Source: Thiomicrorhabdus cannonii (GTDB lineage: Bacteria > Pseudomonadota > Gammaproteobacteria > Thiomicrospirales > Thiomicrospiraceae). Taken from it: 64,000 nucleotides of DNA. This document shows, piece by piece, positions 215-62,345 of this stretch. Under the pieces are notes generated by a model that worked only from the letters and a program-made list of their open reading frames with translations, had not been told where the DNA came from and did no database searches. Positions within the stretch are counted from its first letter, which is position 1; the number at the start of each line of letters is the position of its first letter. The position numbers and the translations under genes are program-made. Location: positions 1-64,000 of the forward strand of contig NZ_JACBGH010000002.1 in assembly GCF_013391695.1 (NCBI RefSeq). Reading direction: 5' to 3'.

Positions 215-234
215 AAAACTCAACAGGCCGGGTA
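215..234 (-). repeat. dispersed 20-bp repeat, copy 1
   Basis: The minus strand reads the full core TACCCGGCCTGTTGAGTTTT. This single copy lies just downstream of the tRNA terminator. Confidence 0.85.
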
Positions 235-265
235 TAAAAAGGAGAAATTAAAAACGGCAGGCAAT

Positions 266-299
266 AAAAAAGCCGTTAACGAAAATTCGTTAACGGCTT
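266..299 (-). terminator. terminator of the tRNA operon
   Basis: The perfect inverted repeat GCCGTTAACGAA / TTCGTTAACGGC is followed on the minus strand by TTTTTT, 11 bases past the last tRNA. It is a textbook intrinsic terminator for the minus-strand tRNA transcript. Confidence 0.9.
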
Positions 300-309
300 C
301 TTATTGTAA

Positions 310-386
310 TGGCGGAGCGGACGGGGCTCGAACCCGCGACCCCCTGCGTGACAGGCAGGTATTCTAACCAACTGAACTACCGCTCC
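310..386 (-). tRNA. tRNA-Asp (GTC), second copy in the transcript
   Basis: This 77-nt minus-strand tRNA pairs acceptor arm GGAGCGG with CCGCTCC. The anticodon loop CTGTCAC sits between CCTGC and GCAGG, giving anticodon GTC. The T-loop motif GGTTCGAGCCCC is present and the 3' CCA is encoded (tgg at 310-312). It is identical in sequence to the tRNA-Asp at 571-647 and is the last gene before the terminator. Confidence 0.97.
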
Positions 387-394
387 TAGTTGTA

Positions 395-470
395 TGGTGG
401 GTGGTACAGGGTTCGAACCTGTGACCCTCGCCTTGTAAGGGCGATGCTCTCCCAGCTGAGCTAACCACCC
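395..470 (-). tRNA. tRNA-Val (TAC), second copy in the transcript
   Basis: This 76-nt minus-strand tRNA has acceptor GGGTGGT paired with ACCACCC. The anticodon loop CTTACAA between TCGCC and GGCGA gives anticodon TAC. CCA is encoded at 395-397. It is identical to the tRNA-Val at 649-724 and is separated from the downstream tRNA-Asp by 8 bases. Confidence 0.97.
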
Positions 471-570
471 GGGCTTGCCAAATGTCTTACAATGCACTTG
501 GCTTGCGTATTACAGACTTGTCACATCATCTGCAATATCAAAGGTAACTTTCACTACCTTTTGAATTTAA

Positions 571-647
571 TGGCGGAGCGGACGGGGCTCGAACCCGCGA
601 CCCCCTGCGTGACAGGCAGGTATTCTAACCAACTGAACTACCGCTCC
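571..647 (-). tRNA. tRNA-Asp (GTC), first copy in the transcript
   Basis: The sequence and fold are the same as the tRNA-Asp at 310-386, with anticodon GTC and encoded CCA at 571-573. Only one base separates it from the upstream tRNA-Val. About 100 bases of unrelated spacer follow before the second Val-Asp pair. Confidence 0.97.
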
Positions 648-648
648 G

Positions 649-724
649 TGGTGGGTGGTACAGGGTTCGAACCTGTGACCCTCGCCTTGTAAGGGCGATG
701 CTCTCCCAGCTGAGCTAACCACCC
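649..724 (-). tRNA. tRNA-Val (TAC), first copy in the transcript
   Basis: This is the first gene of the minus-strand tRNA transcript. The cloverleaf has anticodon TAC and encoded CCA at 649-651. It is identical to the copy at 395-470. Confidence 0.97.
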
Positions 725-830
725 AATTAAGCACTAATTTCTGAATCGGATTAACTTCTTCAAATCTTCTGCAGGCCGCTTGCCTAGCGGCTTTGCTAGG
801 CTTCGCGTCTGCGCTTAATTGATGTGGCGT

Positions 831-1285: not shown

Positions 1286-3703
1286 TTAGTGTCGATTAGC
1301 GTCAGTTTCACCGTCTTTTACCTCTTCAGCCCCTGAAAACACGGCGATTCCATCATTTTCTTTTATAGGGGTAGGCATTTGCTCTAATGCCACATTCAAC
1401 ACCTCATCCACCCATTTGACCGGGCGGATATCCAACTGTTCTTTAACCTCTTGAGGCACATCTGCCAGGTCACGCACGTTGTCAAACGGAATCAGTACCG
1501 TTTTGATGCCACCTCGCAGCGCGGCCAGCAATTTCTCTTTCAAACCGCCGATCGGCAACACCTCACCGCGCAGCGTGATTTCGCCCGTCATGGCCACATC
1601 CGCCCTAACCGGTGTTTTGGTCAGCACAGACGTGATCGCCGTACAAATGGCAATACCGGCACTCGGACCATCCTTCTTGATCGCCCCTTCCGGAAAGTGC
1701 AGATGCAAATCCAGATTTTCATAGAAATCATCGGCCAGTCCAAGCTCGGCAGAGCGACTGCGAATCACACTCATGGCGGTATCCACAGACTCTTTCATAA
1801 CGCTGCCAAGCTGCCCGGTACTGGAATGCTTGCCTTTGCCCGGCATCGCCGTCGCCTCAATCCGCAACAAATCGCCGCCCACACGCGTCCAAGCCAAGCC
1901 GGCAACCTGACCGATACGATTCTGCGCATCCGCCAGACCGATACGATAACGCGCCACGCCAAGATAACCTTCCAGCGTTTCAGGGGTAATGACAATTTTG
2001 CCTTGCGCCTCGCCCGTCACCAGCTTTTTGACCGCCTTGCGGCAAATCTTGGCCAGCTCACGAGCCAAATGGCGCACGCCGGCTTCTCGCGTGTAGGTCT
2101 GGATAATCGCCTTCAACGCCTCATCGGTGATTTCCAACTCATCCACTTTCAAACCGTGATCGCTCGCCGCCTTCGGCAGCAGGTGCTCACGCGCGATATT
2201 CAATTTTTCCGGCTCGGTGTATCCCGACAGTTCGATCACTTCCATACGGTCGAGCAAAGCCTCCGGAATATCCATCGAGTTGGAGGTGGCCACAAACAGC
2301 ACATCAGACAAGTCGTAATCGACTTCCAGGTAATGATCGTTAAAGGTGCTGTTTTGCTCGGGATCCAACACCTCCAGCAAAGCACTGGCGGGATCGCCGC
2401 GCATATCGCTGCTCATCTTGTCGATCTCATCCAGCAAGAAAAGCGGGTTACGCGTGCCGGCACTACTCATTTTTTGAATGATTTTACCCGGCAAGGCGCC
2501 AATATAGGTTTTACGGTGACCGCGGATTTCCGCTTCGTCACGCACGCCACCCAACGCCATACGCACGTATTTGCGGTTGGTTGCTTCGGCGATAGAACGC
2601 GCCAAAGAGGTTTTACCCACGCCCGGCGGTCCAACCAAACACAAAATAGGCCCTTTAATCTTGCGTACGCGCTTCTGTACCGCCAAAAACTCGACAATAC
2701 GCTCCTTGACCTTCTCAAGACCATAATGCTGGCTATCCAGCACCTGCTCTGCATGTTGCAGATCTTTGGAAACGCGCGAGCGTTTTTTCCACGGCACTGC
2801 CAGCAGCCATTCAAGATAGTTGCGAACAACGGTCGCTTCCGAAGACTGCGACGGCATCATTTTGAGTTTTTTCAATTCGGCTTTGGCTTTTGCAAGCGCT
2901 TCTTCGCTCATACCGGCCTGTTCAATTTTCTCAGCCAGCTGATCGTATTCGCTGACGACCCCTTCATCCCCACCGGCTAATTCGGTATGAATCGCCTTAA
3001 TCTTCTCGTTCAGATAGTACTCGCGCTGGGTTTTATCCATCTGCTTCTTGATGCGCGTCGTGATGCGTTTTTCGGACTCCAGCAGCTCACGTTCCGTTTC
3101 CACGATCGACAACATCTGTTCAAGGCGCTCATTGACCGCCGACAACTCCAGTAACGCCTGTTTATCGGCCACTTTCAGATTAACATTGGCCGAAACCAAA
3201 TCCACCAAACGGTCGGCTGACTCCTCTTTTTTGACGGAGGCAATCACCTCCGAAGGGATTTTCTTTTTGAGGTCGGCATATTGCACAAAACTTTCTTTTA
3301 AAGCGCGCAACAGAACAATGGTATCGGTCGGATTATCTTCCATCGAAACAAACTCGCTGATATCACCCAGCAACACATTCGTTTCATTATTCAAGCTCAG
3401 CAGATGGAAACGCTGCACCCCTTCCACCAACACTTTGACCGTACCGTCCGGCAACTTCAATAGCTGCAGAATATTGGCCATAGTACCTACAGAATAGAGG
3501 TCTTCCAATGTAGGGATATCCTGCTCAGCGCTTTTTTGGGTGACCAGGAAGATCTGTTTATCGCCTTCCATGGCCTCGTTCAATGCCTGTATGGACTTTT
3601 CGCGACCCACAAACAGTGGCATGACATTGCCGGGGAAAACCACTACATCCCTTAATGGCAGCACTAATACATTCATTTTCATTGTGACTTGGTCGAGTTC
3701 CAT
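1286..3703 (-). CDS. lon: ATP-dependent protease Lon
   Basis: This 805-residue cytoplasmic AAA+ serine protease degrades misfolded and regulatory proteins. The order of domains is an N-terminal substrate-binding LON domain (about 10-200), a coiled-coil linker, an AAA+ module with Walker [10 protein letters not shown] near residue 360, and the C-terminal peptidase with the catalytic serine in KKDGPSAG near 675. The later lysine lies in [10 protein letters not shown]. Length is normal for bacterial LonA. The ATG start is supported by AAAGGA upstream. An intrinsic terminator separates it from clpX, leaving under 40 bases for a promoter, so transcription may depend partly on read-through. Confidence 0.98.
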
Positions 3704-7706: not shown

Positions 7707-9638
7707 CTACTCCGCTTCAAACTCCTGCGTGAGCATCTCCACGGTTTCCTGCAACTCCAACCACTCCAGCTCGATCTCTTCGATTTCACTCTCATAAACC
7801 GCCTGCTGCTTAAGCGCTTCGGTTAATTTATCCTTGTTTGCCGTTTCATAAATCGTGGCATCTTCCATTAAGGCATGCAGTTTGGCCAGTTCGGCCTGCG
7901 CCTGCTCCAGGCGCTTTTCAACCTTGGTCAGTTTCTGCGTGTAAGGTTTCAGCTTAATCTCAAGCTGCTTGCGGCGCTGCGCGTTTTCCTGACGCTGCTG
8001 TTTCTTGTTCTTGGCCGGCTCGCTACCCGGCCTGTTGAGTTTATTTTTGGCTTCTTCCTGCGCCTGCTTCAACACCTTCAGACGGGTCTGCAAGTAGCTT
8101 TCCAGGTCCCCATGATACAGACTGACCTGTTTGTCATGCACCCACCAGAACTGGTCGGCGATACTGGTCAACAGGTGCTTGTCGTGCGTCACCAATATCA
8201 AAGCGCCGCCAAACTCCTGCAACGCCATATCCAACGCATCGCGCGTTTCCATATCCAAGTGGTTGGTCGGTTCGTCCAGAATCACCAAATTGGGACGCTG
8301 CAGAATAATCATCGCCAACGCCAGACGCGCTTTTTCGCCGCCCGAAAAACTCGCCACCGGCGTCAGACTCATCTCGTTGGAAAACCCGAATCGCCCGAGA
8401 AAATCCCTGGCCTGCTGATCCGTGACCTCCTCACTCAACCCCAGCAAGTGCTGCAGCGGACTCTTATCCAAATGCAACGCCTCCAGCTGATGCTGGGCGA
8501 AGTAACCGATAGACACACCTTTGCTGAAGACTACCTTGCCGGCCGTCGGTGGCAAATCACCCACCAACAGTTTGATCAAACTGGTCTTACCAGAACCATT
8601 GACCCCGACCAAACCGATGCGATCGCCGGCACGCAACACCAGACTGACTTGCTCGAAAAGTAACTCGTCGCCATAACCAAAATCGACCTGTTCAACCTTC
8701 ATCATCGGATCAGGCTGATGTTTGGGAGGCAAAAATTCAAACTGAAAGGGGTTGGTCGCCTGAACCGCCGCCACCTGTTCGATACGCTCCAACGCCTTGA
8801 CGCGACTTTGCGCCTGCTTGGCCTTGGAAGCTTTGGCCTTGAAGCGTTCGATAAACGATTTGAGATGCTGCATCTGCTGTTTCTGTTTATCGTGCAACGC
8901 CTGCTGCTGCATCAACTGTTCGTTGCGCTGACGCTCAAACGCGGCAAAGTTACCGGCATAATAGGTGATTTTCTGATTCAAAATATGCGCAATGCCCTGC
9001 ACCACTTCATCGAGAAAATCACGGTCGTGGGAGATAATCAGTACCGCACCTTGATAAGCCTTCAGCCACTGTACCAGCCAAGCCACCGCTTCGATATCCA
9101 AGTGATTGGTCGGCTCATCCAGCAACAACAGATCCGAACGCTGCATCAGCGCCCGCCCTAACTTCAGGCGCACCTGCCAACCACCCGAAAAGGCACTCAT
9201 CGGTTTGTGCAAATCGGCGACGCTAAACCCCAAACCGGCAAGCAGCTGCTCGGCCTTTAAAGGCACTTCATAACCGGCAATGCGATCCATGCCATCATAG
9301 GCCGCCACCAGTGCCGACTCGTTCTGCTCAGTCTCGGCGCGCTGAATGCTCGCCACCATCTGCGCGTACTGCGTATCACCAAAGCAGACATAATCCAATG
9401 CACTTAATTCGGTATGCCCGACCTCCTGTTCAACATATCCAATCAACCAATTGGCGGGCACAGCAATCTGTCCGGCCTCAAGCGGCACCTCGCCCATAAT
9501 GGCCTTAAACAGAGTGGTCTTGCCCACGCCGTTTTGACCGATCAGACCGATTTTCTGACCGGGGTGGATCGTCAGACTGGCATTTTCGAACAAAGGCTTA
9601 AGCCCGGCACGAATCGCGACGTTTTGAATAGCTAACAT
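7707..9638 (-). CDS. yheS: ABC-F family ATPase, YheS-like
   Basis: This 643-residue cytoplasmic protein has two ABC domains and no membrane segments, typical of ABC-F translation factors. Walker A motifs are GQNGVGKTT (about 33) and GVNGSGKTS (about 345). Signatures are FSGGWQVRLKLGRAL and FSGGEKARLALAMI, each followed by LLDEPTNHLD. The inter-domain arm contains FIERFKAKASKAKQAQSRVKALERIE, as in E. coli YheS. A charged coiled-coil tail follows (about 540-640). A copy of the dispersed repeat is translated as KLNRPGS at the start of that tail. It is the last gene of a TRIC-lolC-lolD-yheS operon, 7 bases after lolD. Confidence 0.93.
   Translation of the reverse strand: MLAIQNVAIRAGLKPLFENASLTIHPGQKIGLIGQNGVGKTTLFKAIMGEVPLEAGQIAVPANWLIGYVEQEVGHTELSALDYVCFGDTQYAQMVASIQRAETEQNESALVAAYDGMDRIAGYEVPLKAEQLLAGLGFSVADLHKPMSAFSGGWQVRLKLGRALMQRSDLLLLDEPTNHLDIEAVAWLVQWLKAYQGAVLIISHDRDFLDEVVQGIAHILNQKITYYAGNFAAFERQRNEQLMQQQALHDKQKQQMQHLKSFIERFKAKASKAKQAQSRVKALERIEQVAAVQATNPFQFEFLPPKHQPDPMMKVEQVDFGYGDELLFEQVSLVLRAGDRIGLVGVNGSGKTSLIKLLVGDLPPTAGKVVFSKGVSIGYFAQHQLEALHLDKSPLQHLLGLSEEVTDQQARDFLGRFGFSNEMSLTPVASFSGGEKARLALAMIILQRPNLVILDEPTNHLDMETRDALDMALQEFGGALILVTHDKHLLTSIADQFWWVHDKQVSLYHGDLESYLQTRLKVLKQAQEEAKNKLNRPGSEPAKNKKQQRQENAQRRKQLEIKLKPYTQKLTKVEKRLEQAQAELAKLHALMEDATIYETANKDKLTEALKQQAVYESEIEEIELEWLELQETVEMLTQEFEAE
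8023..8043 (+). repeat. dispersed 20-bp repeat inside yheS
   Basis: TACCCGGCCTGTTGAGTTTA matches the core in 19 of 20 positions on the plus strand, antisense to yheS. Read in the gene's sense it encodes KLNRPGS in the variable linker after the second ABC domain. Confidence 0.85.
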
Positions 9639-15257: not shown

Positions 15258-15277
15258 TACCCGGCCTGTTGAGTTTT
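15258..15277 (+). repeat. dispersed 20-bp repeat, single copy
   Basis: A perfect TACCCGGCCTGTTGAGTTTT lies between the divergent RND-like gene and mfd. Confidence 0.9.
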
Positions 15278-18873: not shown

Positions 18874-19581
18874 ATGCAGCACACCGCCTCAAAAACACCC
18901 GGCCTGTTGAGTTTTTTTAAACACGTGGCACTCGCTTTTTTGCTGAGCGCCACGCTGCCCGCACAGGCGCAAACAGATGAAGAAGTGCCGAACTATACGC
19001 TGGAAGTAATTGTTTTTGAAACCTTTGCGCTAAAAAGCTGGACAGAGGAATACTGGCCGGAAGACGTGGCGGCGCCGGACAGTGAAAACACCTTGAACCT
19101 GCAAGACCTGCTCAACGGCACACTCAAAAGTCCCGTTGTCGGCAACAAAAGCATGGCGGTGAAAAACGTTGCGCTGGCGCTCAACAACGAGGCCGCCAAA
19201 CTCACCCCGCAGCGCGGTTACCGCATTCTGTTCCACCAGGCGTGGACGCAAAATACGGTGGACGATGTGCAAATGCCGAAACTGTGGATCGACAACAGCG
19301 CCAGCAATAACAGCGGCTCGATCCTGACCGGCACCGTCAAACTCTATAAGAGCCGTTACGCGCATGTCGATTTCGATCTGGAGCTGGAACGCCGCATTCC
19401 CGACCGCATCCGGGACGAGTTTATCGCCCACGAAAAACTGGATCCGACGGGGGTGATTCCCAATACCTGGCGTTTTAAACTGGAAGAATCGCGCAAAATC
19501 CGTCCGGGACAGCTGCACTATATCGACCACCCCCAATTCGGCGTACTGGTGCAGCTCACCTATAACGGCCCGGCTAAATAA
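18874..19581 (+). CDS. csiV: CsiV-like periplasmic peptidoglycan-binding protein
   Basis: This 235-residue protein has an N-terminal signal peptide with hydrophobic core VALAFLLSATLPAQAQ. The mature part starts YTLEVIVFETF, and it ends with TGTVKLYKSRYAHVDFDLEL and IRPGQLHYIDHPQFGVLVQLT, both typical of CsiV, an activator of septal/cell-wall synthesis described in Vibrio. Position directly after mfd fits the usual neighbourhood. A copy of the dispersed repeat (18896-18915) is translated as TPGLLSF, lengthening the n-region of the signal peptide. An alternative start downstream of the repeat is not obvious. Function is by family similarity. Confidence 0.82.
   Translation: MQHTASKTPGLLSFFKHVALAFLLSATLPAQAQTDEEVPNYTLEVIVFETFALKSWTEEYWPEDVAAPDSENTLNLQDLLNGTLKSPVVGNKSMAVKNVALALNNEAAKLTPQRGYRILFHQAWTQNTVDDVQMPKLWIDNSASNNSGSILTGTVKLYKSRYAHVDFDLELERRIPDRIRDEFIAHEKLDPTGVIPNTWRFKLEESRKIRPGQLHYIDHPQFGVLVQLTYNGPAK
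18896..18918 (+). repeat. dispersed 20-bp repeat inside csiV
   Basis: CACCCGGCCTGTTGAGTTTT, differing from the core at one base, lies in the forward sense of csiV and encodes PGLLSF within the signal peptide n-region. Confidence 0.88.
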
Positions 19582-20184: not shown

Positions 20185-20204
20185 TACCCGGCCTGTTGAG
20201 TTTT
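20185..20204 (+). repeat. dispersed 20-bp repeat, single copy
   Basis: A perfect core TACCCGGCCTGTTGAGTTTT. It is followed after AAAACGCCTT by the partial inverse AAAACTCAAC (20214-20223), which covers the last bases of the DUF4156 gene, giving a possible hairpin at 20195-20224. Confidence 0.88.
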
Positions 20205-21384: not shown

Positions 21385-21406
21385 AACCCGGCCTGTTGAG
21401 TTTTTT
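21385..21406 (+). repeat. dispersed 20-bp repeat after trmO
   Basis: AACCCGGCCTGTTGAGTTTT matches the core except the first base, with an extended T run. It begins 6 bases after the trmO stop in the sense orientation. Confidence 0.88.
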
Positions 21407-22434: not shown

Positions 22435-22583
22435 GGCTTCGTCCTCCTCCTGGGATGCTAGGCTCAAACATAACACTCCCCATCCCGGATAAAAAGCACT
22501 TTCCACAAAAATTGTGCCTTGCCCGTTTGCTAGCCCGGCAATATCCCTTAAAATCGAGTCTTATCCCTCTAGGTAAACACTGT

Positions 22584-23376: not shown

Positions 23377-23402
23377 TACCCGGCCTGTTGAGTTTTTTAA
23401 AA
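23377..23402 (+). repeat. dispersed 20-bp repeat after the HAD gene
   Basis: A perfect core TACCCGGCCTGTTGAGTTTT with extra T and A bases, starting one base after the stop codon of the HAD phosphatase gene and in its sense orientation. Confidence 0.9.
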
Positions 23403-27887: not shown

Positions 27888-27966
27888 TGCCCACCGCAAC
27901 CCTTCACCTGAAACAATCCGCCTATCATAGCAAAAAGCGCGTTTGTCACCAGCTGATTTGGCCCGT

Positions 27967-27985
27967 AACTCAACAGGCCGGGGTA
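27967..27985 (-). repeat. dispersed repeat, single copy with one extra C
   Basis: The minus strand reads TACCCCGGCCTGTTGAGTT, the core with CCCC instead of CCC. It lies between the divergent sugE and FKBP genes. Confidence 0.82.
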
Positions 27986-28053
27986 TTCGAGGTGCCCTTA
28001 TGTTGGTTGTATTTATGTTAAGATGCCGTTTTTCACTCAAAAGGACGACAGTC

Positions 28054-33661: not shown

Positions 33662-34609
33662 TCATGTCATCAACTGCAAAATCAGCGTCAGACTAAACAA
33701 CGACAACACCGTCGAAAACAAAATGGTTTGTGCGGTGACGACGGCATCGCGTTTATAGAATTCCGCCAACATATAAGGACCGGTGCCGGTGGGCAAGGCC
33801 GCCAGCAGAATCGCCATCATGGCCCACTGCCGATCCATCTCAAACACCCACAGCGCCAACCAGGCGACCAGCAACGGCTGGCCAATCAGCTTCAAGGTGG
33901 TTAATTGCCAGGCGGTGCGGCGTGCTCCCACCCCGGCCTGTTCACTTTTTTGCAGGGCGTCCGCCAGAAACAATCCCAAACTGATCAAGGCTGCCGGGCT
34001 GGCCGCCGCGCCCAGTAAATCCAAAAAGGTTTCGATGCCGTGCGGCAAAGCCCAGCCGCTTAACGAGAACGACAGACCGGCAAGCGGCGCAAACACCAAC
34101 GGGTTTTTAAACACCGACAGCAGCGCCTGGCCAATGCGCTGCGGCAAGGCTTTATGCGCATGCAATTCGCTTTCAATCAACACAATCGCCAGCGCAAACA
34201 AAACGCATACCACGATAATGCTGGCGATGGTGGTCGGCAACAGGCTGCTTTCGCCAAACACCAACAGCAGTAGCGGAAAGCCGACATAACCGGTATTGGA
34301 ATAAGCGCCCGCCACGCCGTCCACACTGGCGCAGGCCAAAGGCGCACCCTGCCAACGCCGCCACAGCAGAATCACAAAGAAAACGCCCAGCGTGCCCAAG
34401 AGATAGACGCTGATAAATGTCCCCTGCCAGAAAACTTCCCAAGGGGTATGCGCCATAATGTCAAACAGCAAGGCCGGCAGCGCCAGCCAGATGACAAAAC
34501 GGCTCAGTTCGGATGCCGCATTCGGCCCCAACACGCCAGCCTTGCGACTGGCAAAACCGGCGGCGATCAAAGCAAAAACAGGCAATAAAATGGAGAGGGT
34601 TTGCAGCAA
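33662..34609 (-). CDS. AEC family auxin-efflux-carrier-like permease
   Basis: This 315-residue membrane protein has ten hydrophobic segments in two halves. Family elements are LPVFALIAAGFASRKAGVLG, FVIWLALPALLF, a central hydrophilic loop, LKLIGQPLLVAWLAL, and the end LPTGTGPYMLAEFYKRDAVVTAQTILFSTVLSLFSL. AEC carriers export malate or other organic anions in some bacteria; the substrate here is unknown. A degenerate copy of the dispersed repeat is translated as KSEQAGVG in the loop before the seventh segment. It lies upstream of the deaminase in the same orientation, which may be functional but is not proof. Confidence 0.87.
   Translation of the reverse strand: MLQTLSILLPVFALIAAGFASRKAGVLGPNAASELSRFVIWLALPALLFDIMAHTPWEVFWQGTFISVYLLGTLGVFFVILLWRRWQGAPLACASVDGVAGAYSNTGYVGFPLLLLVFGESSLLPTTIASIIVVCVLFALAIVLIESELHAHKALPQRIGQALLSVFKNPLVFAPLAGLSFSLSGWALPHGIETFLDLLGAAASPAALISLGLFLADALQKSEQAGVGARRTAWQLTTLKLIGQPLLVAWLALWVFEMDRQWAMMAILLAALPTGTGPYMLAEFYKRDAVVTAQTILFSTVLSLFSLTLILQLMT
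33929..33952 (+). repeat. dispersed repeat variant inside the AEC gene
   Basis: CACCCCGGCCTGTTCACTTTTTTG is a variant with an extra C and TGTTCAC for TGTTGAG. It lies antisense to the permease gene and is translated as QKSEQAGVG. Confidence 0.7.
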
Positions 34610-34691: not shown

Positions 34692-34744
34692 AAAAACTCA
34701 ACAGGCCGGGTAGCATAGCCGCCACCCGGCCTGTTGAGAATTTT
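34692..34744. repeat. inverted pair of dispersed repeats
   Basis: AAAACTCAACAGGCCGGGTA (34692-34711) faces CACCCGGCCTGTTGAGAATT (34723-34742) across 11 bases. The pair can form a 15-bp stem with A-rich and T-rich flanks. It lies downstream of the minus-strand gene at 34815 and upstream of the AEC gene, so it could end transcription. Confidence 0.88.
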
Positions 34745-37854: not shown

Positions 37855-37904
37855 AAAACCCAACAGGCCGGGTAGAACGATATTTACCCGGCCTGTTGGG
37901 TTTT
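37855..37904. repeat. inverted pair of dispersed repeats with compensatory change
   Basis: AAAACCCAACAGGCCGGGTA (37855-37874) and TACCCGGCCTGTTGGGTTTT (37885-37904) are perfect reverse complements across 10 bases. Both arms carry the same departure from the consensus, GGG for GAG, so pairing is preserved. The 20-bp stem with A and T runs could end ahpD transcription. Confidence 0.92.
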
Positions 37905-45986: not shown

Positions 45987-46640
45987 ATGGCATTGGCAAT
46001 TTTTGACCTCGACAACACTCTGATCGCCGGCGACAGCGACTACCTTTGGGGCAAGTTCCTGATTAAGAAGGGAGCGGTGGAAGCCGAGTTTTTCGAATCG
46101 GAAAACGAGCGTTTTTACGCCATGTACAAGGCCGGCACACTGGACATCATGGAATATCAGCATTTCTCACTGAAACCGCTGACGCAATATGACATGGACA
46201 CGCTGATCGCCTGGCACGACGAGTTCATGCAGACGGTGATCGAGCCGATCTATCTGCCAAAAGCGCAGGCTCTGGTGGATGAGCACCGCGACAAAGGCGA
46301 CGAACTGTTGATCATCACCGCCACCAACAGTTTTGTCACCCGCCCTATCGGTCAGATGTACGGCATTACCAACTTGATTGGCACCGACCCCGAAATGCTG
46401 GATGGACGTTTTACCGGTGAAGTCGATGGCGTGCCCTCCTTCCAGGGCGGGAAAGTAACGCGCCTGAAAAGCTGGCTGGAGGATAGACAGTTCACTCTCG
46501 AAGGCAGTTTTTTCTATTCCGACTCGCACAATGACCAACCGCTGCTGGAGCTGGTCGACAATCCCGTTGTGGTCGATGCGGATGAAACTTTGCTGAAGAT
46601 CGCACAACGTAAAAAATGGCCGGCCATCAGCCTGCGCTGA
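45987..46640 (+). CDS. HAD-superfamily subclass IB phosphatase (SerB-like)
   Basis: This 217-residue hydrolase has motif I AIFDLDNTLIAGDSDYLWGKFL, motif II in LLIITATNSFVTRPIGQMYGI and motif III/IV in FFYSDSHNDQPLLELVDNPVVVDAD. It belongs to the HAD-IB group next to rppH in many gammaproteobacteria; some members are annotated as histidinol-phosphatases, but the substrate here is not certain. The gene is preceded by a promoter candidate and followed by a dispersed repeat and a strong terminator. Confidence 0.9.
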   Translation: MALAIFDLDNTLIAGDSDYLWGKFLIKKGAVEAEFFESENERFYAMYKAGTLDIMEYQHFSLKPLTQYDMDTLIAWHDEFMQTVIEPIYLPKAQALVDEHRDKGDELLIITATNSFVTRPIGQMYGITNLIGTDPEMLDGRFTGEVDGVPSFQGGKVTRLKSWLEDRQFTLEGSFFYSDSHNDQPLLELVDNPVVVDADETLLKIAQRKKWPAISLR

Positions 46641-46652: not shown

Positions 46653-46675
46653 TACCCGGCCTGTTGAGTTTTTTT
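46653..46675 (+). repeat. dispersed 20-bp repeat after the HAD gene
   Basis: A perfect core TACCCGGCCTGTTGAGTTTT with extra T bases, 12 bases after the stop codon and in the same sense. Confidence 0.9.
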
Positions 46676-49314: not shown

Positions 49315-49333
49315 TACCCGGCCTGCCGAGTTT
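49315..49333 (+). repeat. degenerate dispersed repeat
   Basis: TACCCGGCCTGCCGAGTTT differs from the core at TGTTGAG, which is TGCCGAG here. It lies 60 bases after nadC, before the antiporter gene. Confidence 0.65.
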
Positions 49334-49417
49334 GGCAAGGGTTTATACAACCCGATTGCCAAACCCTATAAACCCAAAGTAACCGCGTAAAAACGCATTT
49401 TTTCACTAAGGATCAAC

Positions 49418-51647: not shown

Positions 51648-52463
51648 TTATGACTCCAGCCAAATCAGCGACGCCATGCGTCCGGTTTGGCCGTCACGCC
51701 GGTAGGAGTAAAAACGCGCGCTATCCGCATAGGAACACAGACCGCTATCACTGATCTGCTGCACGCCCAATTGCGTCAATTCGGATTTCAACAGGCCGGG
51801 TAGATCGGCCAGATATTTGCCGGTCGCAGCCGGCAACGCTTCAAAAAACCGCGCATTGTGCGCTGCCTGCCCCGCAAATCTGTCAAACACATCCTGCCCC
51901 ACCTCAAAGTGCGGCTGGCGGATACAAGGGCCAATCCATACCAAGAGGTTTTCGGCCTCGTCCGGCAAGCGCTGCAACGTCTGCGTGACAATGCCGTCCG
52001 CCAAACCGCGCCAGCCGGCGTGGATCGCCGCCGCAAGAGTGCCCGTTTTGTTGGTCACCAGAATCGGAATGCAGTCGGCGGTCATCACCACCGCCACCTG
52101 ATTGGAGCTCTGCGTCCATGCCGCATCGGCAACGGGCGCCTGCCATGTCGAAGCCGCCGCCGCATTTAAGTCAACACAGTCCACCGTATGCTGCTGCTCC
52201 AGCCAAAAAGGCTCGCCCGGCAATCCCAACGCATCGCGCAGGCAGTCGCGGTTAGCCTGCACCGCAGCCGGATCATCGCCCACATGGGTGGCAAGATTAA
52301 AACTATCGAAAGGTGGTTGTGAAGCACCACACTCGCTCGCCACCCGGCCTGTTGAGTTTTTACAAACCTCCGGCGCGCGGCGAGTGGTGCAATAGGCACG
52401 CACCTTAGTCGGTGCGCTCCATTGAGGTATGATCAAATTGGCATCATTCCGGAATATCGTCAT
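51648..52463 (-). CDS. pgeF: purine-nucleoside phosphorylase/laccase-domain protein PgeF (YfiH), with inserted repeat
   Basis: This protein of about 272 residues is of the YfiH/DUF152 family, which hydrolyses aberrant peptidoglycan precursors (PgeF) and has purine nucleosidase activity in relatives. It keeps FDSFNLATHVGDD, WLEQQHTVD, MTADCIPILVTN, HAGWRGLADG (zinc His), WIGPCIRQPHFEVG and CSYADSARFYSYRRDGQTGRMASLIWL. Between CTTR and GASQPPFDSFN, where the family has about four residues, there are about 18, including KNSTGRVA encoded by a dispersed repeat. The start at 52463 overlaps rluD by 20 bases; a TTG at 52436 is an alternative. Confidence 0.9.
   Translation of the reverse strand: MTIFRNDANLIIPQWSAPTKVRAYCTTRRAPEVCKNSTGRVASECGASQPPFDSFNLATHVGDDPAAVQANRDCLRDALGLPGEPFWLEQQHTVDCVDLNAAAASTWQAPVADAAWTQSSNQVAVVMTADCIPILVTNKTGTLAAAIHAGWRGLADGIVTQTLQRLPDEAENLLVWIGPCIRQPHFEVGQDVFDRFAGQAAHNARFFEALPAATGKYLADLPGLLKSELTQLGVQQISDSGLCSYADSARFYSYRRDGQTGRMASLIWLES
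51786..51802 (-). repeat. dispersed-repeat-like stretch in pgeF
   Basis: The minus strand reads TACCCGGCCTGTTGAAA, matching the first 15 bases of the core, translated as LPGLLK. The protein is colinear with relatives here, so this may be chance or a conversion rather than an insertion. Confidence 0.45.
52341..52361 (+). repeat. dispersed 20-bp repeat inserted in pgeF
   Basis: CACCCGGCCTGTTGAGTTTT, one base off the core, lies antisense to pgeF and is translated as KNSTGRVA. The surrounding protein shows extra residues against the family. Confidence 0.88.
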
Positions 52464-53493
52464 CCGTGACCCATTCGACTTCCACGCCGTAATCGTAATC
52501 AAACTCGTCGTAGTCGGATTCAAACTGCGATTCAAACGCTTCCAGATCATCACGCAAGGTGTCAATCAGCGCCAGCATGTCGTCCGGCATATCGGCTTTC
52601 CACTTCATGGTCTTGCCGGTTAGCGGATGGGTCAGACTAAGCGCCCCGGCATGCAATGCCTGACGTTTGAATTCGCGCAGAACATCGACAAACCCGTCCA
52701 TCATGCCGCGCGGAATACGCAAACGTTCGCCGTAAACCGGATCGCCAATCAGCGGAAAGCCGATAGACGACATATGCACGCGAATCTGGTGGGTACGCCC
52801 GGTCTCCAATTTGACGCGAATCCGCGTGTGCGCACGGAAATGCTCCATCACACGGTAGTGACTCACCGCCGGCTTGCCGCCGCCGAGCAAACGCACCGCC
52901 ATTTTCTTGCGATCCTGAATACTGCGGCCGATGGGTTTATCGACCGTACCGCCGGCCAGCACGTGACCGACGACCACCGCATCATAGATACGCTCCACCG
53001 CATGACGCTGCAACTGATCCACCAGATGGGTCTGCGCCGGAACGGTTTTGGCGACCACCATCAAACCGGAGGTTTCCTTGTCCAAACGGTGCACAATCCC
53101 GGCACGCGGCACTTCGCGCAACTTAGGATCATGGAACAGCAGCGCGTTCATCAACGTCTGGTCGGGATTACCCGCCCCCGGATGCACCACCAGACCGGCG
53201 GGCTTGTTAATCACCAAAATCGCCTCGTCTTCATAGACGATATCCAGCGGAATCTCCTGGGCGACCAGATCGACCTCGTCGTTCAGTTCGGCTTCCATCA
53301 CCACCTTTTCGCCACCCAGCACACTCTGGCGCGGCTTGGTCCATGCCTGACCGTTGACGGTGACTTTGCCCTCTTTGATCCACTGCTGGATACGGCTGCG
53401 CGAGTATTGCGGAAACAGCTCCGAAACCACCACATCAAAACGCTGCCCCAGGCTGGAGATAGGAATAAATGCCTGTAAAGTTTGTGTACTCAA
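52444..53493 (-). CDS. rluD: 23S rRNA pseudouridine(1911/1915/1917) synthase RluD
   Basis: This 349-residue enzyme has an N-terminal S4 domain (RFDVVVSELFPQYSRSRIQQWIKEGKVTVNG) and a catalytic domain with GIVHRLDKETSGLMVVAKT (catalytic Asp) and LETGRTHQIRVHMSSIGFPLIGDPVYG. The C-terminal tail after MKWKADMPDDM is long and very acidic (ESQFESDYDEFDYDYGVEVEWVTDDD), longer than usual. It is divergent from bamD and overlaps pgeF, the standard order in gammaproteobacteria. Confidence 0.95.
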   Translation of the reverse strand: MSTQTLQAFIPISSLGQRFDVVVSELFPQYSRSRIQQWIKEGKVTVNGQAWTKPRQSVLGGEKVVMEAELNDEVDLVAQEIPLDIVYEDEAILVINKPAGLVVHPGAGNPDQTLMNALLFHDPKLREVPRAGIVHRLDKETSGLMVVAKTVPAQTHLVDQLQRHAVERIYDAVVVGHVLAGGTVDKPIGRSIQDRKKMAVRLLGGGKPAVSHYRVMEHFRAHTRIRVKLETGRTHQIRVHMSSIGFPLIGDPVYGERLRIPRGMMDGFVDVLREFKRQALHAGALSLTHPLTGKTMKWKADMPDDMLALIDTLRDDLEAFESQFESDYDEFDYDYGVEVEWVTDDDIPE

Positions 53494-54581: not shown

Positions 54582-56210
54582 TTATTCGCTGTAGCGACTG
54601 GTAATCGGATAACGACGGTCACGCCCGAACGCGCGGTGCGTGATTTTGATGCCCGGCGCGGCCTGACGACGCTTGTATTCGCTGCGGTCGATCATGCGGA
54701 TCACCCGGCGCACTTCTGTCTCGTCGATCCCCATCGCGGCGATCTGCTGCGGCGTTTTGTCGTCTTTGACATACGCCTTGATAATCGCATCCAGTACATC
54801 GTATTCCGGCAAAGAGTCCTGATCCACCTGATCGGGACGCAACTCCGCCGACGGCGGACGGGTAATGACACGCTCCGGAATCACCGCTCCCAAACTATTG
54901 CGATAGTTGGCCAGACGGTACACCAGCGTTTTCGGCACATCCTTCAACGGCGAGAAGCCGCCGACCATGTCACCGTACAGAGTGGAGTAGCCGACGGCCA
55001 CTTCACTTTTGTTGCTGGTCGCCACCACCATTTTGCCGGTCTTGTTGGACAACGCCATCAACAGCGTACCGCGAATCCGCGCCTGCAGATTCTCTTCGGT
55101 CAGATCGGCTTCCCTCCCGGCAAACGCCGCCGCCAGCGCGGCTTCAAAGGCGGCATACATCGGCTCGATCGGCATCACGCTGTATTTAACGCCCATGCAT
55201 TTTGCCTGCTCGGCCGCATCTTCCTGACTGATGGCGGCGGTATAACGGAACGGCATCATCACCGCCTCGACCTTGTCCGCGCCCAATGCATCGGCGGCAA
55301 TCGCCAGCGTCAGCGCAGAGTCAATCCCGCCGGAAAGCCCCAGTATCACCCCCGGAAAACCGTTTTTCTGCACATAATCGCGCAACCCGGTTTTCAGGGC
55401 TTCATAAACGCGCGCTTCGGCTTCAAACAGGTTAGCTTGCTGCCCGGCCTGAACCGTCACGCCGTCTGCCGTTTTATGCAACACCACCGGCGTCAAGGCA
55501 TCGCTAAACTCCGGCGCCTGCACCTGAACCTGTCCGTGACAGTCCATCACAAAAGAACCGCCGTCAAACACCAGTTCATCCTGACCGCCGACCTGATTCA
55601 CATAAATCACCGCGCAACCGGCCTCATCAACACGGTGCTTGACGACGTCCAGACGGTCCTGATGTTTCTCCTGCGAAAACGGCGAAGCGTTCAGGTTCAG
55701 AATCACCTCGGCTCCGGCCTCTTTGGCCTGCACCGCCGGCGACACTTTCCAGATGTCCTCGCAAATCAACACCCCAAAACGGATGCCCTTATGTTCCACC
55801 ACGCAAGGTTGCTTGCCCGGTGCAAAATAGCGCTGCTCGTCAAACACGCTGTAATTGGGGAGATGCTGCTTGATATAACTCGCCTGAATCTGGCCGTTTT
55901 CGATCCACGCCGCCATATTGAAACGCTCGCCAAGCTCGTCCATCATCGGATAACCGACTACAACGACGACATCCCGCACGCTTTCGCAAATCCGCGTCAA
56001 AGCCGCATTAATCTGCGGGTAGAGCCCTTCGCGCAACAGCAAATCCTCGGGCGGATAACCCGTCAGCGTCAACTCCGGAAATACCACGATATCCGCCTGC
56101 TGTTGCGTTCTGGCTTGCTTGGAAGCGTCAATCACCAACTGCACGTTTCCGCTGATATCGCCTACCACCGGATTGATTTGCGCCATCACCACAACGACAT
56201 TTTCAGACAT
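54582..56210 (-). CDS. nadE: glutamine-dependent NAD+ synthetase
   Basis: This 542-residue enzyme amidates nicotinate adenine dinucleotide to NAD+, using glutamine. The N-terminal nitrilase-like glutaminase (1-250) has the Glu46-Lys114-Cys150 triad (FPEL, IKQHLPNY, LICEDIWK). The C-terminal synthetase has the ATP loop GLSGGIDSALTLAIA and TSNKSEVAVGYSTLYGDM. The ATG at 56210 is chosen from family alignment. sucD ends about 90 bases upstream with a dispersed repeat between. nadC lies 5 kb away. Confidence 0.96.
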   Translation of the reverse strand: MSENVVVVMAQINPVVGDISGNVQLVIDASKQARTQQQADIVVFPELTLTGYPPEDLLLREGLYPQINAALTRICESVRDVVVVVGYPMMDELGERFNMAAWIENGQIQASYIKQHLPNYSVFDEQRYFAPGKQPCVVEHKGIRFGVLICEDIWKVSPAVQAKEAGAEVILNLNASPFSQEKHQDRLDVVKHRVDEAGCAVIYVNQVGGQDELVFDGGSFVMDCHGQVQVQAPEFSDALTPVVLHKTADGVTVQAGQQANLFEAEARVYEALKTGLRDYVQKNGFPGVILGLSGGIDSALTLAIAADALGADKVEAVMMPFRYTAAISQEDAAEQAKCMGVKYSVMPIEPMYAAFEAALAAAFAGREADLTEENLQARIRGTLLMALSNKTGKMVVATSNKSEVAVGYSTLYGDMVGGFSPLKDVPKTLVYRLANYRNSLGAVIPERVITRPPSAELRPDQVDQDSLPEYDVLDAIIKAYVKDDKTPQQIAAMGIDETEVRRVIRMIDRSEYKRRQAAPGIKITHRAFGRDRRYPITSRYSE

Positions 56211-56257
56211 AGTGTTTACCCGTTTATTGCGTTTAAGATCGGCCTGAAGCATTCGCT

Positions 56258-56279
56258 AAAAAACTCAACAGGCCGGGTA
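56258..56279 (-). repeat. dispersed 20-bp repeat between sucD and nadE
   Basis: The minus strand reads TACCCGGCCTGTTGAGTTTT followed by TT. It lies about 20 bases after the sucD stop in the same sense. Confidence 0.9.
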
Positions 56280-59270: not shown

Positions 59271-60522
59271 TTTTCTGTCCTTTTGCTACTTCTTTAACTT
59301 CACCAAATACGACCACACGGTTTCGTCCGGCCTCCTTGGCCTGATAGAGCGCCTGGTCGGCTGCCTTTATAACCTCTTCGGGCGTTTTAAAACTGGCGTT
59401 GCGCTCCGCCACACCAATACTGACGGTGACTTTGGTCGTGGTATCCTTGCCGTGATGTTTGAACTTGAGTTCGGTCGTTTCCAACTGTTTACGCAGCACC
59501 TCCAGAACCGGCTTGGCCTGTTCCGGGGTTTTTCCGGCAAACACCACGCTGAACTCTTCGCCGCCAAAACGGTACGCCTTACCGCCACCGCCCACACCGC
59601 TCAACACGCGGCTCACCGTTTGCAGCACCAAATCTCCAATGTCGTGGCCGTAAGTATCGTTGAACTTCTTGAAATGGTCCACATCCACCATCGCCACCGT
59701 ATAGCTGCGCCCCAACCCCATAAAGGACTCAAACAGCGCACGGCGCCCGGCCATGCCCGTGAGTTCGTCGGTATAGGCCATTTGATGCACATCAAATACC
59801 AAAGAGAGCACCACCATCAGGGCGGCGATCGTCGCCATCCAGTTCCACAACTCGGGGATGGCGAGATTATTCAGGGCATAGGCCATCAACACCAGTACAA
59901 ACAGCACCACCTGATCCAACACCTTGGGCTTGCGCATCATCGCCATGCGCACCACCATCAGGTTGAGCAGCACAATCGCCACCACCGTGGTCACCATCGG
60001 CATGTGGATGACAAACAGCGGATCCTGGCTGATCGGCGCACTCAGCTGCTCAACCCAGTGCGGCGGCAAATCATACACCAAGCTCTGCAACAACGGCATC
60101 TGCAGCACCAAAACCGCCAGTGTCAGCAGATTAAATCCCCAATGGCGCACGCCGCGTTCCGGCCAGAACAGCCACAAAAACAGATTTAACGGCAAAGCCA
60201 AACCGAGCAACACAAAGAAAAAGGGGATGTCAGGCGTGCGCGGTTGAATCGCCGCGTAATAGTTGAAGGCGAAGGTACTGAGCGCCAGCACCAGCAGAAT
60301 CGCCACAGGGCGGATGCGATTCAGGAAAACGCCGACAAACAGACCGACGGCAACGATGCCGTAAGGCGCATAATCGAGCAGACTCAGCCAAGCGGCAGGC
60401 CAATGTAAAATCTGTTCGGATTGCCACCATGCCAAACCACTCAGTGCCAGTAACCAAAGTGTATGGATAAACAAATCGAATCCTTGCGCCTGTTTGAAAA
60501 CCCAAACTTTACCATCTAGCAC
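59242..60522 (-). CDS. membrane diguanylate cyclase (GGEEF)
   Basis: This 426-residue protein has six to seven hydrophobic helices in its first 250 residues, with no recognised MASE family, and a C-terminal GGDEF domain (about 255-410). The domain starts MAYTDELTGMAGRRALFESF and has an active site FGGEEFSVV, plus VSIGVAER and ADQALYQAKEAGRNRV. It should make c-di-GMP. No RxxD site is seen five residues before GGEEF. It overlaps the FKBP gene by 29 bases. Confidence 0.88.
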   Translation of the reverse strand: MLDGKVWVFKQAQGFDLFIHTLWLLALSGLAWWQSEQILHWPAAWLSLLDYAPYGIVAVGLFVGVFLNRIRPVAILLVLALSTFAFNYYAAIQPRTPDIPFFFVLLGLALPLNLFLWLFWPERGVRHWGFNLLTLAVLVLQMPLLQSLVYDLPPHWVEQLSAPISQDPLFVIHMPMVTTVVAIVLLNLMVVRMAMMRKPKVLDQVVLFVLVLMAYALNNLAIPELWNWMATIAALMVVLSLVFDVHQMAYTDELTGMAGRRALFESFMGLGRSYTVAMVDVDHFKKFNDTYGHDIGDLVLQTVSRVLSGVGGGGKAYRFGGEEFSVVFAGKTPEQAKPVLEVLRKQLETTELKFKHHGKDTTTKVTVSIGVAERNASFKTPEEVIKAADQALYQAKEAGRNRVVVFGEVKEVAKGQKSARIRKRKA

Positions 60523-60587
60523 TCCACGGGTGAAGCGCCAAAGTGCAGATTTAGCGACTTTTTAGAATTTTCAGAAATCGCGCTTCC

Positions 60588-60639
60588 AAAACTGAACAGG
60601 CCGGGTAGGAATCAACCGTTACCCAACCTGTTGAGATTT
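60588..60639. repeat. inverted pair of dispersed repeats
   Basis: AAAACTGAACAGGCCGGGTA (60588-60607) faces TACCCAACCTGTTGAGATTT (60620-60639) across 12 bases. Each arm has drifted. It lies between two divergent genes, where a terminator role is unlikely. The rest of the 60523-60806 gap is AT-rich promoter-like sequence. Confidence 0.8.
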
Positions 60640-60806
60640 ACATAAGCGGGTTTACCAGTCTTGTGGCGGATAAGAGCCGATCGACAACGCATAGCTAGAG
60701 TACGTGTCATATTTAATTAAAAAATGTTTCATACATATACGCAGTATTCAGCATTTAAATACCTTTTCCAATTTTTTTTACTGTCATTTACTTATAAGGA
60801 AAGAAG

Positions 60807-62210
60807 ATGTTTAAACGTACCGCGATACTCGCTTCGATTTTAGCAACCACTTTGTTGGCTGGATGTGATGACACAACCACTGCAATTGATCCGATCGATC
60901 AAATCTCACCATCAGGAGCCACTTTGCCCTATTCTATCCTGCGCGCAGATATTACAGACTTTAACACTCAAATGCCTTTTGAAATCCGTAATGGCGGTTA
61001 TGGTTCATCAATGGCGCCGCATCCAACCAATAAAAACCAGTTTTATGCAATGACTGACCGCGGCCCTAACGCTGACTACACCGGATCTTTAGGTAAGGGG
61101 AAAATGTTTCCAACGCCAGACTATACCCCGACTATCGGTTTGTTTGAGGTAGGTACTGACGGTGAAATCAGCCTGGTTAAAAAAGTTCTGATGAAGCAAC
61201 CTGACGGAACACCAATTACCGGCTTGCCTAACAGCAGCACTTTGGGCGGCACAAATGAAATTCCTTATGACGCGTCTGGCAGCCCTATCCTCCAAGACCC
61301 GACTCAAGCTTACGATGCCGCAACTAACCCGACAAAAACCGACGATTACGGTTTGGACTCGGAAGGGCTGGTCGCTATAGCTGACGGCACTTTCTGGGTG
61401 AGTGATGAATACGGCCCGCATATCGTACATTTTGACGCTGACGGTAAAGAAATTGACCGTATCAACCCATTTACTGCTGATACGCGCGTATCAATCAATC
61501 TTCCGGCTGAATTTGCTAACCGCTGGGCCAACCGCGGCATGGAAGGTTTGACGGTAACGCCTGACGGAAAAACGCTGGTCGGCATGATGCAGTCGACGCT
61601 ATATAACCCAAGCAAAGCAGCGGTGACCAATTTCAACCTGATACGTATCGTGACCATCAATCTGGATACCCAAGAGATTGGTCAATATCTTTACAGACAA
61701 GAAATCGCCAAAAACGCCAACTCTGAAATTGCCGCTCTAAATGATCACCAATTCTTGGTCATCGAACGTGACGGGCTATTCCTGAACGGTGGTCCGGACA
61801 ATGGTGCCGCACAACCTACTGCAATGAAAAAAGTTTATCGTATTGATATAACCGATGCGACCAATCTTGAAACGGTAGCAGACGGCGGCAATCTTGCCCA
61901 AGACGCAACGATTGGTTTAACCGTAAACGGTAAAGCGTTGGAAGAAATTTCTGACTGGGATGCTTTGGCTACAGAAGGCATTGTGCCAGTGACCAAAACG
62001 GAAGTGGTCGATATGGTTGCGGAAGTGCAGTATCCACATGACAAGATGGAAGGACTGTGGATTATTGATAACAACACGCTCGGTGTGATTAACGATGATG
62101 ACTTCGCTACTTGGGCGTCTAGCAACCAGCTTGAGCAAAAAGTATTGGATTCCAACGGCACGATTGACCAAAATACGCTTTATGTTGTTAAGAAAGATTT
62201 GCTGAACTAA
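60807..62210 (+). CDS. phytase-like esterase-domain lipoprotein (PF13449 type)
   Basis: This 467-residue lipoprotein has signal sequence MFKRTAILASILATTLLAGC with a lipobox. The body is a beta-propeller-like domain: FEIRNGGYGSSMAPHP, FYAMTDRGPNAD, DYGLDSEGLVAIADGTFWVSDEYGPHIVHF, ANRGMEGLTVTPDGKTLVG and DKMEGLWIIDNNTLGVINDDDF. These match the 'esterase-like activity of phytase' family, whose true substrates are mostly unknown. Codon use and base composition are AT-richer than in its neighbours, which suggests transfer. It is monocistronic with its own terminator. Confidence 0.85.
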   Translation: MFKRTAILASILATTLLAGCDDTTTAIDPIDQISPSGATLPYSILRADITDFNTQMPFEIRNGGYGSSMAPHPTNKNQFYAMTDRGPNADYTGSLGKGKMFPTPDYTPTIGLFEVGTDGEISLVKKVLMKQPDGTPITGLPNSSTLGGTNEIPYDASGSPILQDPTQAYDAATNPTKTDDYGLDSEGLVAIADGTFWVSDEYGPHIVHFDADGKEIDRINPFTADTRVSINLPAEFANRWANRGMEGLTVTPDGKTLVGMMQSTLYNPSKAAVTNFNLIRIVTINLDTQEIGQYLYRQEIAKNANSEIAALNDHQFLVIERDGLFLNGGPDNGAAQPTAMKKVYRIDITDATNLETVADGGNLAQDATIGLTVNGKALEEISDWDALATEGIVPVTKTEVVDMVAEVQYPHDKMEGLWIIDNNTLGVINDDDFATWASSNQLEQKVLDSNGTIDQNTLYVVKKDLLN

Positions 62211-62240
62211 TCCCTAGCTAGGCAACCCTCTTTGTAACAG

Positions 62241-62270
62241 ACCCGAGCCGAATAGGACTCGGGTTTTTTA
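62241..62270 (+). terminator. terminator after the phytase-like gene
   Basis: ACCCGAG and CTCGGGT around a 10-base loop, followed by TTTTTT. Confidence 0.88.
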
Positions 62271-62296
62271 TGCCTGAAAACAAAGAGCGCCATTTT

Positions 62297-62345
62297 AAAA
62301 GCGAACAGGCCGGGTAAGCTGCCACCTACCCGGCCTGTTCATTTT
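62297..62345. repeat. inverted pair of dispersed repeats with shared variant
   Basis: AAAAGCGAACAGGCCGGGTA (62297-62316) and TACCCGGCCTGTTCATTTT (62327-62345) pair across 10 bases. Both arms have C where the consensus has G after TGTT, so the stem is kept. Confidence 0.88.

What the first reader, a model, noticed from the sequence alone, without database searches (positions are those of the whole stretch)
215..62345. A dispersed 20-bp repeat family, about two dozen copies in 64 kb
TACCCGGCCTGTTGAGTTTT or close variants occur at 215, 8024, 15258, 18896, 20185, 21385, 23377, 27967, 33929, 34692/34723, 37855/37885, 38316, 46653, 49315, 52341, 56258, 60588/60620 and 62297/62327 (51786 is doubtful). 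A 20-mer would not recur so often by chance. Copies sit mostly between genes, often 1-20 bases after a stop codon in the same sense, and also inside genes. In the reverse sense all three frames are open. GGGTAG frequently ends the unit, recalling the conserved tetranucleotide of REP elements, but no RAYT transposase is in the window. I do not recognise the sequence as a described family.
Basis: partly seen in the sequence, partly recalled or inferred. Interest (0 to 1): 0.88.

Follow-up and report, generated by a model that had tools for sequence, protein, structure and literature searches.

The report
A third family of DNA-uptake signals
The short repeat scattered through this sulfur bacterium looks like a self-recognition tag for taking up DNA, a kind of signal reported so far only in the families of Haemophilus and Neisseria, and its relatives carry different 'dialects' of it; uptake itself is still untested.

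Summary
The repeat is real: 20 matches (≤3 mismatches) in the window, none expected; 548 in the 2.49-Mb Thiomicrorhabdus genome, reversed control 0. It is not a REP or other inserted element: where aligned relatives lack a site, 0 of 443 comparisons show an insertion ≥12 bp, and this genome has no RAYT. The unit exceeds 20 bp: a 19-bp core, then T-tracts about one helical turn apart, also inside genes, as in Pasteurellaceae uptake signal sequences. Relatives carry hundreds of copies of other 'dialects', all centred on GGCC and mostly palindromic with mirrored tracts; 34 of 62 family genomes have ≥100 copies of a searched dialect. Sites recur at the same place between species (222 of 632, 11.6 expected), dialects cluster on a tree, and a Mu-like prophage that splits comEC has 0 sites, about 10 expected. 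Best explanation: an independently evolved, palindrome-based DNA uptake-sequence system, spread by biased uptake plus recombination. Uptake is untested, the receptor unknown, and comEC is broken in this very genome.

The parts
215..234 (-). exact copy of the unit
   Evidence: 0 mismatches
2910..2929 (+). weak copy, antisense inside the lon gene 1286-3703 (-); doubtful
   Evidence: (3 mismatches in the 17-mer)
8024..8043 (+). copy inside the ABC-F-like gene 7707-9638 (-), in a variable linker; several relatives carry other dialects in the same linker
15258..15277 (+). exact intergenic copy; G004 has a 3-mismatch copy at the same place
18896..18915 (+). copy at the start of the CsiV-family gene 18874-19581
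20185..20204 (+). exact intergenic copy; G005 (Thiomicrorhabdus sp. zzn3) has AGCAGGCCTGTTCAG at the aligned place
21385..21404 (+). copy 6 bases after the end of ORF 20639-21379
23377..23396 (+). exact copy just after the end of ORF 22455-23375
27965..27984 (-). copy in ORF 27567-28055 (-), Small Multidrug Resistance protein family
33930..33949 (+). copy in ORF 33662-34609 (-), membrane transport protein
34693..34742 (.). tail-out inverted pair (34693-34712 - and 34723-34742 +), terminator-like
37855..37904 (.). tail-out inverted pair
46653..46672 (+). exact copy after ORF 45987-46640
49315..49334 (+). degenerate copy
   Evidence: 3 mismatches
51783..51802 (-). degenerate copy in ORF 51648-52565 (-), Cu-oxidase_4 family
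52341..52360 (+). copy in ORF 51648-52565 (-) as listed, ahead of the matched domain
56260..56279 (-). exact copy just upstream of the NAD synthase gene 54582-56252 (-)
60588..60639 (.). tail-out inverted pair
62297..62346 (.). tail-out inverted pair

Best explanation
The repeat is a DNA uptake sequence: a short motif that a surface DNA receptor of the type IV pilus / competence machinery prefers. Released DNA carrying the motif is taken up more often and recombined into the chromosome, so over generations point mutations towards the motif accumulate wherever it is tolerated (molecular drive). Core: ACCCGGCCTGTTGAGTTTT. The T-tracts one, two and three helical turns downstream probably help the duplex bend or melt at the pore. 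Inverted pairs between genes may double as transcription terminators. Relatives carry dialects around a common GGCC, mostly symmetric; in this lineage one arm changed (AACA to ACCC) and the signal became one-sided. Shown here: abundance, architecture, dialects, origin by substitution rather than insertion, shared places, absence from a prophage, enrichment restricted to the family in the samples searched. Inferred: preferential uptake, pilus receptor, drive, terminator use, bending.
For: (1) 548 copies in 2.49 Mb, control 0. (2) T at offsets 29-32 is 0.52 against 0.24 background (p=5e-38) and at 40-42 is 0.39 (p=1e-9); in the 49 coding sites alone 0.54 (p=9e-19) and 0.34 (p=0.007), so not a by-product of terminators. 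USS carry AT-rich segments, in the Hin type the second centred 12 positions beyond the first (PMC1626085, passages). (3) G033 has tracts at +11-13, +22-24 and +31-34 on both sides of its palindrome (21 sites, symmetrised). (4) Dialects found de novo in 8 of 10 sampled genus-mates; family counts; labels cluster on a tree (9 changes, shuffled mean 18.0, as low in 0 of 200). (5) 222 of 632 aligned sites co-located, 11.6 expected; in-place dialect difference at window 20192. (6) 0 of 443 absences with an insertion >=12 bp, 295 gapless, while 18 of 6249 control positions show one. (7) The three largest site-free stretches of the G000 sample hold a Mu-like prophage, a Tn7-like element with type I restriction genes, and an hsdM gene among ordinary genes; 0 sites in the prophage, 10.2 expected. 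(8) 9 of 10 close pairs in 464 kb are tail-out at 22-26 bp. (9) ComEC family in 56 of 62 family genomes, prepilin signals in 10 of 10 tested.
Against: No uptake experiment, and searches found no paper naming the genus with natural transformation. comEC of this very genome is split by a prophage and G004 shows no ComEC match (92% complete, fragmented), so these two may no longer be competent. Most motif-less relatives keep ComEC, so ComEC does not track the motif. No ComP-type receptor: 1 sub-cutoff hit in 62 genomes. The known uptake sequences quoted in the papers are not palindromic. More even spacing than random is clear only in G000 after removing three islands chosen after the fact (CV 0.69 vs 0.96, P=0.001); with them CV is 1.19; 11 other species combined P=0.079. 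Small insertions (1-11 bp) are commoner at absent sites (138 of 443) than at controls (904 of 6249).
Confidence: 0.82

Rival explanations
1. Binding sites of an abundant chromosome-organising or DNA-bending protein (dimeric, GGCC-centred), selected for nucleoid structure.
For: Palindromic dialects with phased A/T tracts look like sites of a dimeric bending protein; sites lie on both strands and in and between genes.
Against: Groups of species and single species lack the searched dialects; letters differ by dialect at shared places; the prophage is empty; this lineage is one-sided.
Confidence: 0.1
2. HIP1-like palindrome maintained by an orphan DNA methyltransferase acting on the inner GGCC.
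For: Every dialect found keeps GGCC; HIP1 of cyanobacteria is a highly iterated palindrome tied to methyltransferases (PMC4390886: start of abstract and passages).
Against: C5 methyltransferase family PF00145 gives no match in G000, G005, G015, G018, G021, G023, G025, G033 or any of the 9 g5 genomes, all motif-bearing; it is present in some motif-bearing (such as G009, G019, G030) and some motif-less genomes (such as G003, G012, G013), 24 of 62 in all. Phased tracts 10-40 bp away do not fit a methylase site. An m4C enzyme was not tested.
Confidence: 0.04
3. REP/RAYT or MITE-like inserted repeat.
For: High copy number, largely intergenic placement in G000, inverted pairs; Y1 transposases exist in 35 of 62 family genomes.
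Against: No Y1 transposase match in motif-bearing G000, G004, G005, G018 or G023, and matches in several motif-less genomes; no insertion >=12 bp in 443 aligned absences; flanks unrelated.
Confidence: 0.01
4. Only a family of intrinsic transcription terminators.
For: 10 close inverted pairs in 464 kb; convergent gaps rich in sites (27 in 9.7 kb, against 31 in 49 kb of codirectional gaps).
Against: 98 of 118 sites are not in close pairs, and 49 lie inside called genes with the same T-tracts.
Confidence: 0.02

Closest known systems
Uptake signal sequence (USS) of Pasteurellaceae
   Same: Strong core plus AT-rich tracts about a helical turn apart downstream; hundreds to thousands of copies in and between genes; arises by substitution; variants by subclade; competence genes sometimes broken or interrupted by an insertion (PMC1626085, passages; PMC7811141, introduction part 1 and passages).
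   Different: Core unrelated (GGCC-centred, not GCGG); mostly palindromic with tracts on both sides; different family; uptake not shown.
DNA uptake sequence (DUS) of Neisseriaceae
   Same: Several dialects in one family following phylogeny, with a shared inner core; inverted pairs at terminators (PMC3630211, abstract and passages).
   Different: Other sequence; DUS have no flanking motifs (PMC1626085, passage); no ComP-family receptor found here.
HIP1 of cyanobacteria
   Same: Highly iterated palindrome, low or absent in some lineages (PMC4390886, start of abstract).
   Different: Here a unit of roughly 20-60 bp with phased tracts and dialects, and no C5 methyltransferase tracking it.
REP elements with RAYT
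   Same: Short, dispersed, often intergenic, partly paired.
   Different: No RAYT in this genome, no insertion, present by substitution inside genes.

Membership tests
Uptake sequences as a kind (USS/DUS) | Hundreds to thousands of copies, far above chance | tested here: met
   548 in G000, control 0; up to 1025 in G023, control 1
Uptake sequences as a kind (USS/DUS) | Arise by point mutation, not insertion | tested here: met
   0 of 443 aligned absences with an insertion >=12 bp
Uptake sequences as a kind (USS/DUS) | Related dialects that follow phylogeny with a conserved inner core | tested here: met
   GGCC in all dialects found; 9 changes vs 18.0 shuffled on an ABC-F tree; clustering is not perfect (G002 and L206 lie apart from their dialect group)
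Uptake sequences as a kind (USS/DUS) | Under-represented in newly acquired DNA | tested here: met
   Mu-like prophage 0 vs 10.2 expected; two further gaps with mobile or restriction genes; one genome only
Uptake sequences as a kind (USS/DUS) | Inverted pairs placed like terminators | tested here: met
   9 of 10 close pairs tail-out; convergent gaps enriched; termination itself not tested
Uptake sequences as a kind (USS/DUS) | Competence and type IV pilus genes present | tested here: inconclusive
   ComEC in 56 of 62, split in G000; prepilins in 10 of 10; PilQ, PilT, ComEA, DprA not searched
Uptake sequences as a kind (USS/DUS) | Motif DNA preferentially taken up | not testable with these tools
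   needs an uptake assay
Pasteurellaceae USS | AAGTGCGGT / ACAAGCGGT core with inner GCGG | tested here: not met
   consensus ACCCGGCCTGTTGAGTTTT and palindromic relatives
Pasteurellaceae USS | AT-rich tracts phased about a helical turn downstream | tested here: met
Neisseriaceae DUS | DUS consensus and ComP receptor | tested here: not met
   different consensus; PF16732 none over cut-off in 62 genomes
REP/RAYT | RAYT (Y1) transposase tracking the repeat | tested here: not met
   PF01797 0 in G000, G004, G018, G005, G023
HIP1-like | Methyltransferase of the inner sequence tracking the repeat | tested here: inconclusive
   C5 family PF00145 absent from many motif-rich genomes; m4C families not tested

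The most novel reading that the evidence does not exclude
A third, independently evolved DNA uptake-sequence system, found in free-living sulfur-oxidising bacteria (Thiomicrorhabdus, Hydrogenovibrio, Thiomicrospira), whose basic form is a palindrome with phased A/T tracts on both sides, with at least five dialects within the family, absence in some species and groups, and one lineage (the window's) that turned the symmetric signal into a one-sided USS-like one.
Probability: 0.75. Interest if true: 0.93.

Novelty: new variant of a known kind. Interest (0 to 1): 0.88.

Why it matters
An October 2025 paper still names Neisseriaceae and Pasteurellaceae as the only families known to select DNA by a short motif at the first step of transformation (PMC12616744, introduction). 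A third family, environmental and not host-bound, would show that self-recognition in transformation is not tied to mucosal life, would give a palindromic signal to compare with the two known ones, and supplies many dialects plus motif-less sisters for finding the receptor and testing molecular drive. Phased tracts arising again would argue that DNA bending at the pore is a general need.

Tried and rejected
REP/MITE: rejected. Methyltransferase/HIP: not supported for C5 enzymes; N4 enzymes not searched. ComP-type receptor: none over cut-off. Receptor by presence or absence of prepilins in 10 genomes: by position (no annotation) I read two kinds of cluster, each also seen in motif-less G020, so no candidate stands out. 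A prepilin cluster (L290 6270-12143) evolves faster (39-65% identity to G025 for the four prepilins) than most neighbouring genes (about 80-96%; three neighbours 50-56%) and stays a candidate only. A signal-regex search for prepilins in the 80-480 kb samples gave one match, which looks spurious. G025 1-400 kb hardly overlapped the G000 sample, so in-place switching for G000 itself rests on few loci: 4 of 22 aligned comparisons carry a motif. In the ABC-F linker exact columns are uncertain because the alignment is gappy. Other motifs in motif-less genomes: no word stands out as in motif-bearing ones in 80 kb of G003 and G020; samples of 22-63 kb from others show none either, but such samples are weak, since in a 22.6-kb positive control (T. 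chilensis) the known word ranked only third among 8-mers. Viral contigs: exact motifs in 3 and 4 IMG/VR contigs, not looked into. The first comparison of the prophage ends failed; one search then showed the ends. In the first tree I mislabelled one row (L206, whose locus has 13 CAGGCCTGCT and 1 CCAGGCCTGG); one search gives the corrected counts used here (9 changes, 18.0 shuffled, instead of 8 and 17.3). Literature: searches gave 0 papers each; in the capped lists of 19, 32, 33, 37 and 74 I saw no description of this motif; passages of PMC6501319 and PMC1838430 did not describe it either. Only PubMed Central open-licence papers are held.
Full report
WHAT IS THERE. The 20-mer occurs 20 times with ≤3 mismatches in the window, 0 expected, and its 17-mer 548 times with ≤2 mismatches in the 2.49-Mb genome, reversed control 0.

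THE UNIT. In 464 kb (window plus C1:1-400000) 118 sites have ≤4 mismatches to ACCCGGCCTGTTGAGTTTT. Left of the core little is conserved (T 45% at -1, C 42% at -2); right of it come G at 24-25, T at 29-32 and T at 40-42. The tracts hold in 49 coding sites alone (T 29-32 = 0.54, p=9e-19; T 40-42 = 0.34, p=0.007), and the two mirror stretches tested on the left show no excess of A. This is the anatomy described for Haemophilus-type USS, where AT-rich segment 3 is centred 12 positions beyond segment 2 (PMC1626085, passages).

RELATIVES. The genus is Thiomicrorhabdus (contig lengths tie G025 to T. chilensis DSM 12352, G018 to sp. ZW0627, G005 to sp. zzn3, G004 to MAG DE12.002; the window's own record is not shown). 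NCBI places the genus in Piscirickettsiaceae. De novo word counts in 80 kb each of 10 genus-mates gave a GGCC-centred word on top in 8 and none in G003 and G020. Dialects: AACAGGCCTGTT (G018, G005), CAGGCCTGCT (G025), ACCAGGCCTGGT (G009, G015, G019, G030), TACCGGCCGGTA (G023), with A-tracts left and T-tracts right, weaker in G019 and G030. In G033, of another genus, tracts repeat at +11-13, +22-24 and +31-34 on both sides (21 sites). Of 62 family genomes, 34 have at least 100 sites of one searched dialect: 17 of 32 in g1, 7 of 11 in g6, 9 of 9 in g5, 1 of 1 in g3, none in g2, g4 and g28 (4, 1 and 4 genomes) (palindromes: all 62 genomes; the asymmetric form: which covered 37 of the 62, G000 and G004 counting by it). 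Outside the family, in 365 sampled genomes of the class, the ACCAGGCCTGGT dialect (≤1 mismatch) never exceeds 43 matches (its control 24); other dialects were not searched there except in the 21.

NOT INSERTED, SHARED PLACES. Among aligned sites between species 222 of 632 are co-located, 11.6 expected; the local length differs by more than 3 bp in 37. Where the partner lacks the motif, 0 of 443 show an insertion ≥12 bp and 295 have no gap; 18 of 6249 control positions do show such an insertion. Small insertions are commoner at absent sites (138 of 443 vs 904 of 6249) and local identity is lower (0.669 vs 0.743). G000 and its sister G004 (85.6% nucleotide identity) share motif places at the few loci compared. 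At window 20192 G000 has TACCCGGCCTGTTGAGTTTT and G005 TAGCAGGCCTGTTCAG-TTT in an aligned intergenic stretch. In the linker of the ABC-F gene 10 of 28 genus genomes carry a motif, in three dialects (column homology uncertain).

PHYLOGENY. On an ABC-F tree of 36 rows the dialect labels need 9 changes (shuffled mean 18.0, as low in 0 of 200, labels corrected). G000 and G004 (100/100) sit inside a group with G018, G025, G005 and G008 (98/93), which carry symmetric CAGGCCTG forms, so the one-sided form most likely came from a symmetric one by change of the left arm (inference). Motif-less rows need 4 changes. One gene tree only.

ACQUIRED DNA. The largest site-free stretch (40.2 kb) holds a Mu-like prophage (Mu transposase, portal, gpT, sheath) lying in comEC: the N-terminal part at C1:89832-88051, the C-terminal part at C1:51357-50566. 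It has no site, 10.2 expected. The next two gaps include a Tn7-like module (TniQ, rve/Mu-transpos_C) with type I restriction genes, and a stretch with hsdM; both have lower GC (46% and 43.6%) and also contain ordinary genes. With the three islands removed, spacing in G000 is more even than random (CV 0.69, random 0.96±0.09, P=0.001; islands chosen after the fact); with them CV is 1.19; 11 other species give combined P=0.079. PMC7811141 (introduction) states that USS evolve by point mutation and are under-represented in newly acquired segments.

MACHINERY. ComEC: 56 of 62 family genomes. RAYT: none in G000, G004, G005, G018, G023, though 35 of 62 genomes have some Y1 match. C5 methylases do not track: 24 of 62 genomes, motif-bearing and motif-less alike. 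ComP-type receptor: none over cut-off. Prepilins occur in motif-bearing and motif-less genomes alike. The receptor is unknown.

VERDICT. The sequence-level hallmarks of uptake sequences tested here are met, the gene set is only partly tested, and the functional one, preferential uptake, cannot be tested here. Palindromy, the GGCC core and the host family are new in what I could search.

Noticed in passing
G000 C1 about 51.3-88.06 kb (L015-L017): A Mu-like prophage of about 37 kb splits comEC, with TG...CA ends and an apparent 5-bp target duplication read by eye from the printed ends; it carries a D12-class methyltransferase gene near one end.
   Followed up: partly
G000 C1 104-118 kb (L018): A Tn7-like transposition module (TniQ, rve/Mu-transpos_C transposase) beside a type I restriction-modification system, near selA.
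   Followed up: partly
window 313-724: Four tRNA genes whose equal Rfam scores in pairs suggest a tandemly duplicated pair.
   Followed up: no
G033 C1:1-100000 (L170-L174): A second over-represented word, GGGGCGAAGG / GGGGCGCAGG, unrelated to the uptake-like motif.
   Followed up: no
L290 6270-12143 (G000 C12): A cluster of prepilin-like proteins with a histidine kinase-like ATPase domain protein and (read by eye) a response regulator-like gene, conserved in G025 and faster evolving than most neighbouring genes; candidate DNA receptors.
   Followed up: partly
viral contigs L293-L299: Seven IMG/VR contigs carry an exact motif; host or cellular contamination not checked.
   Followed up: no
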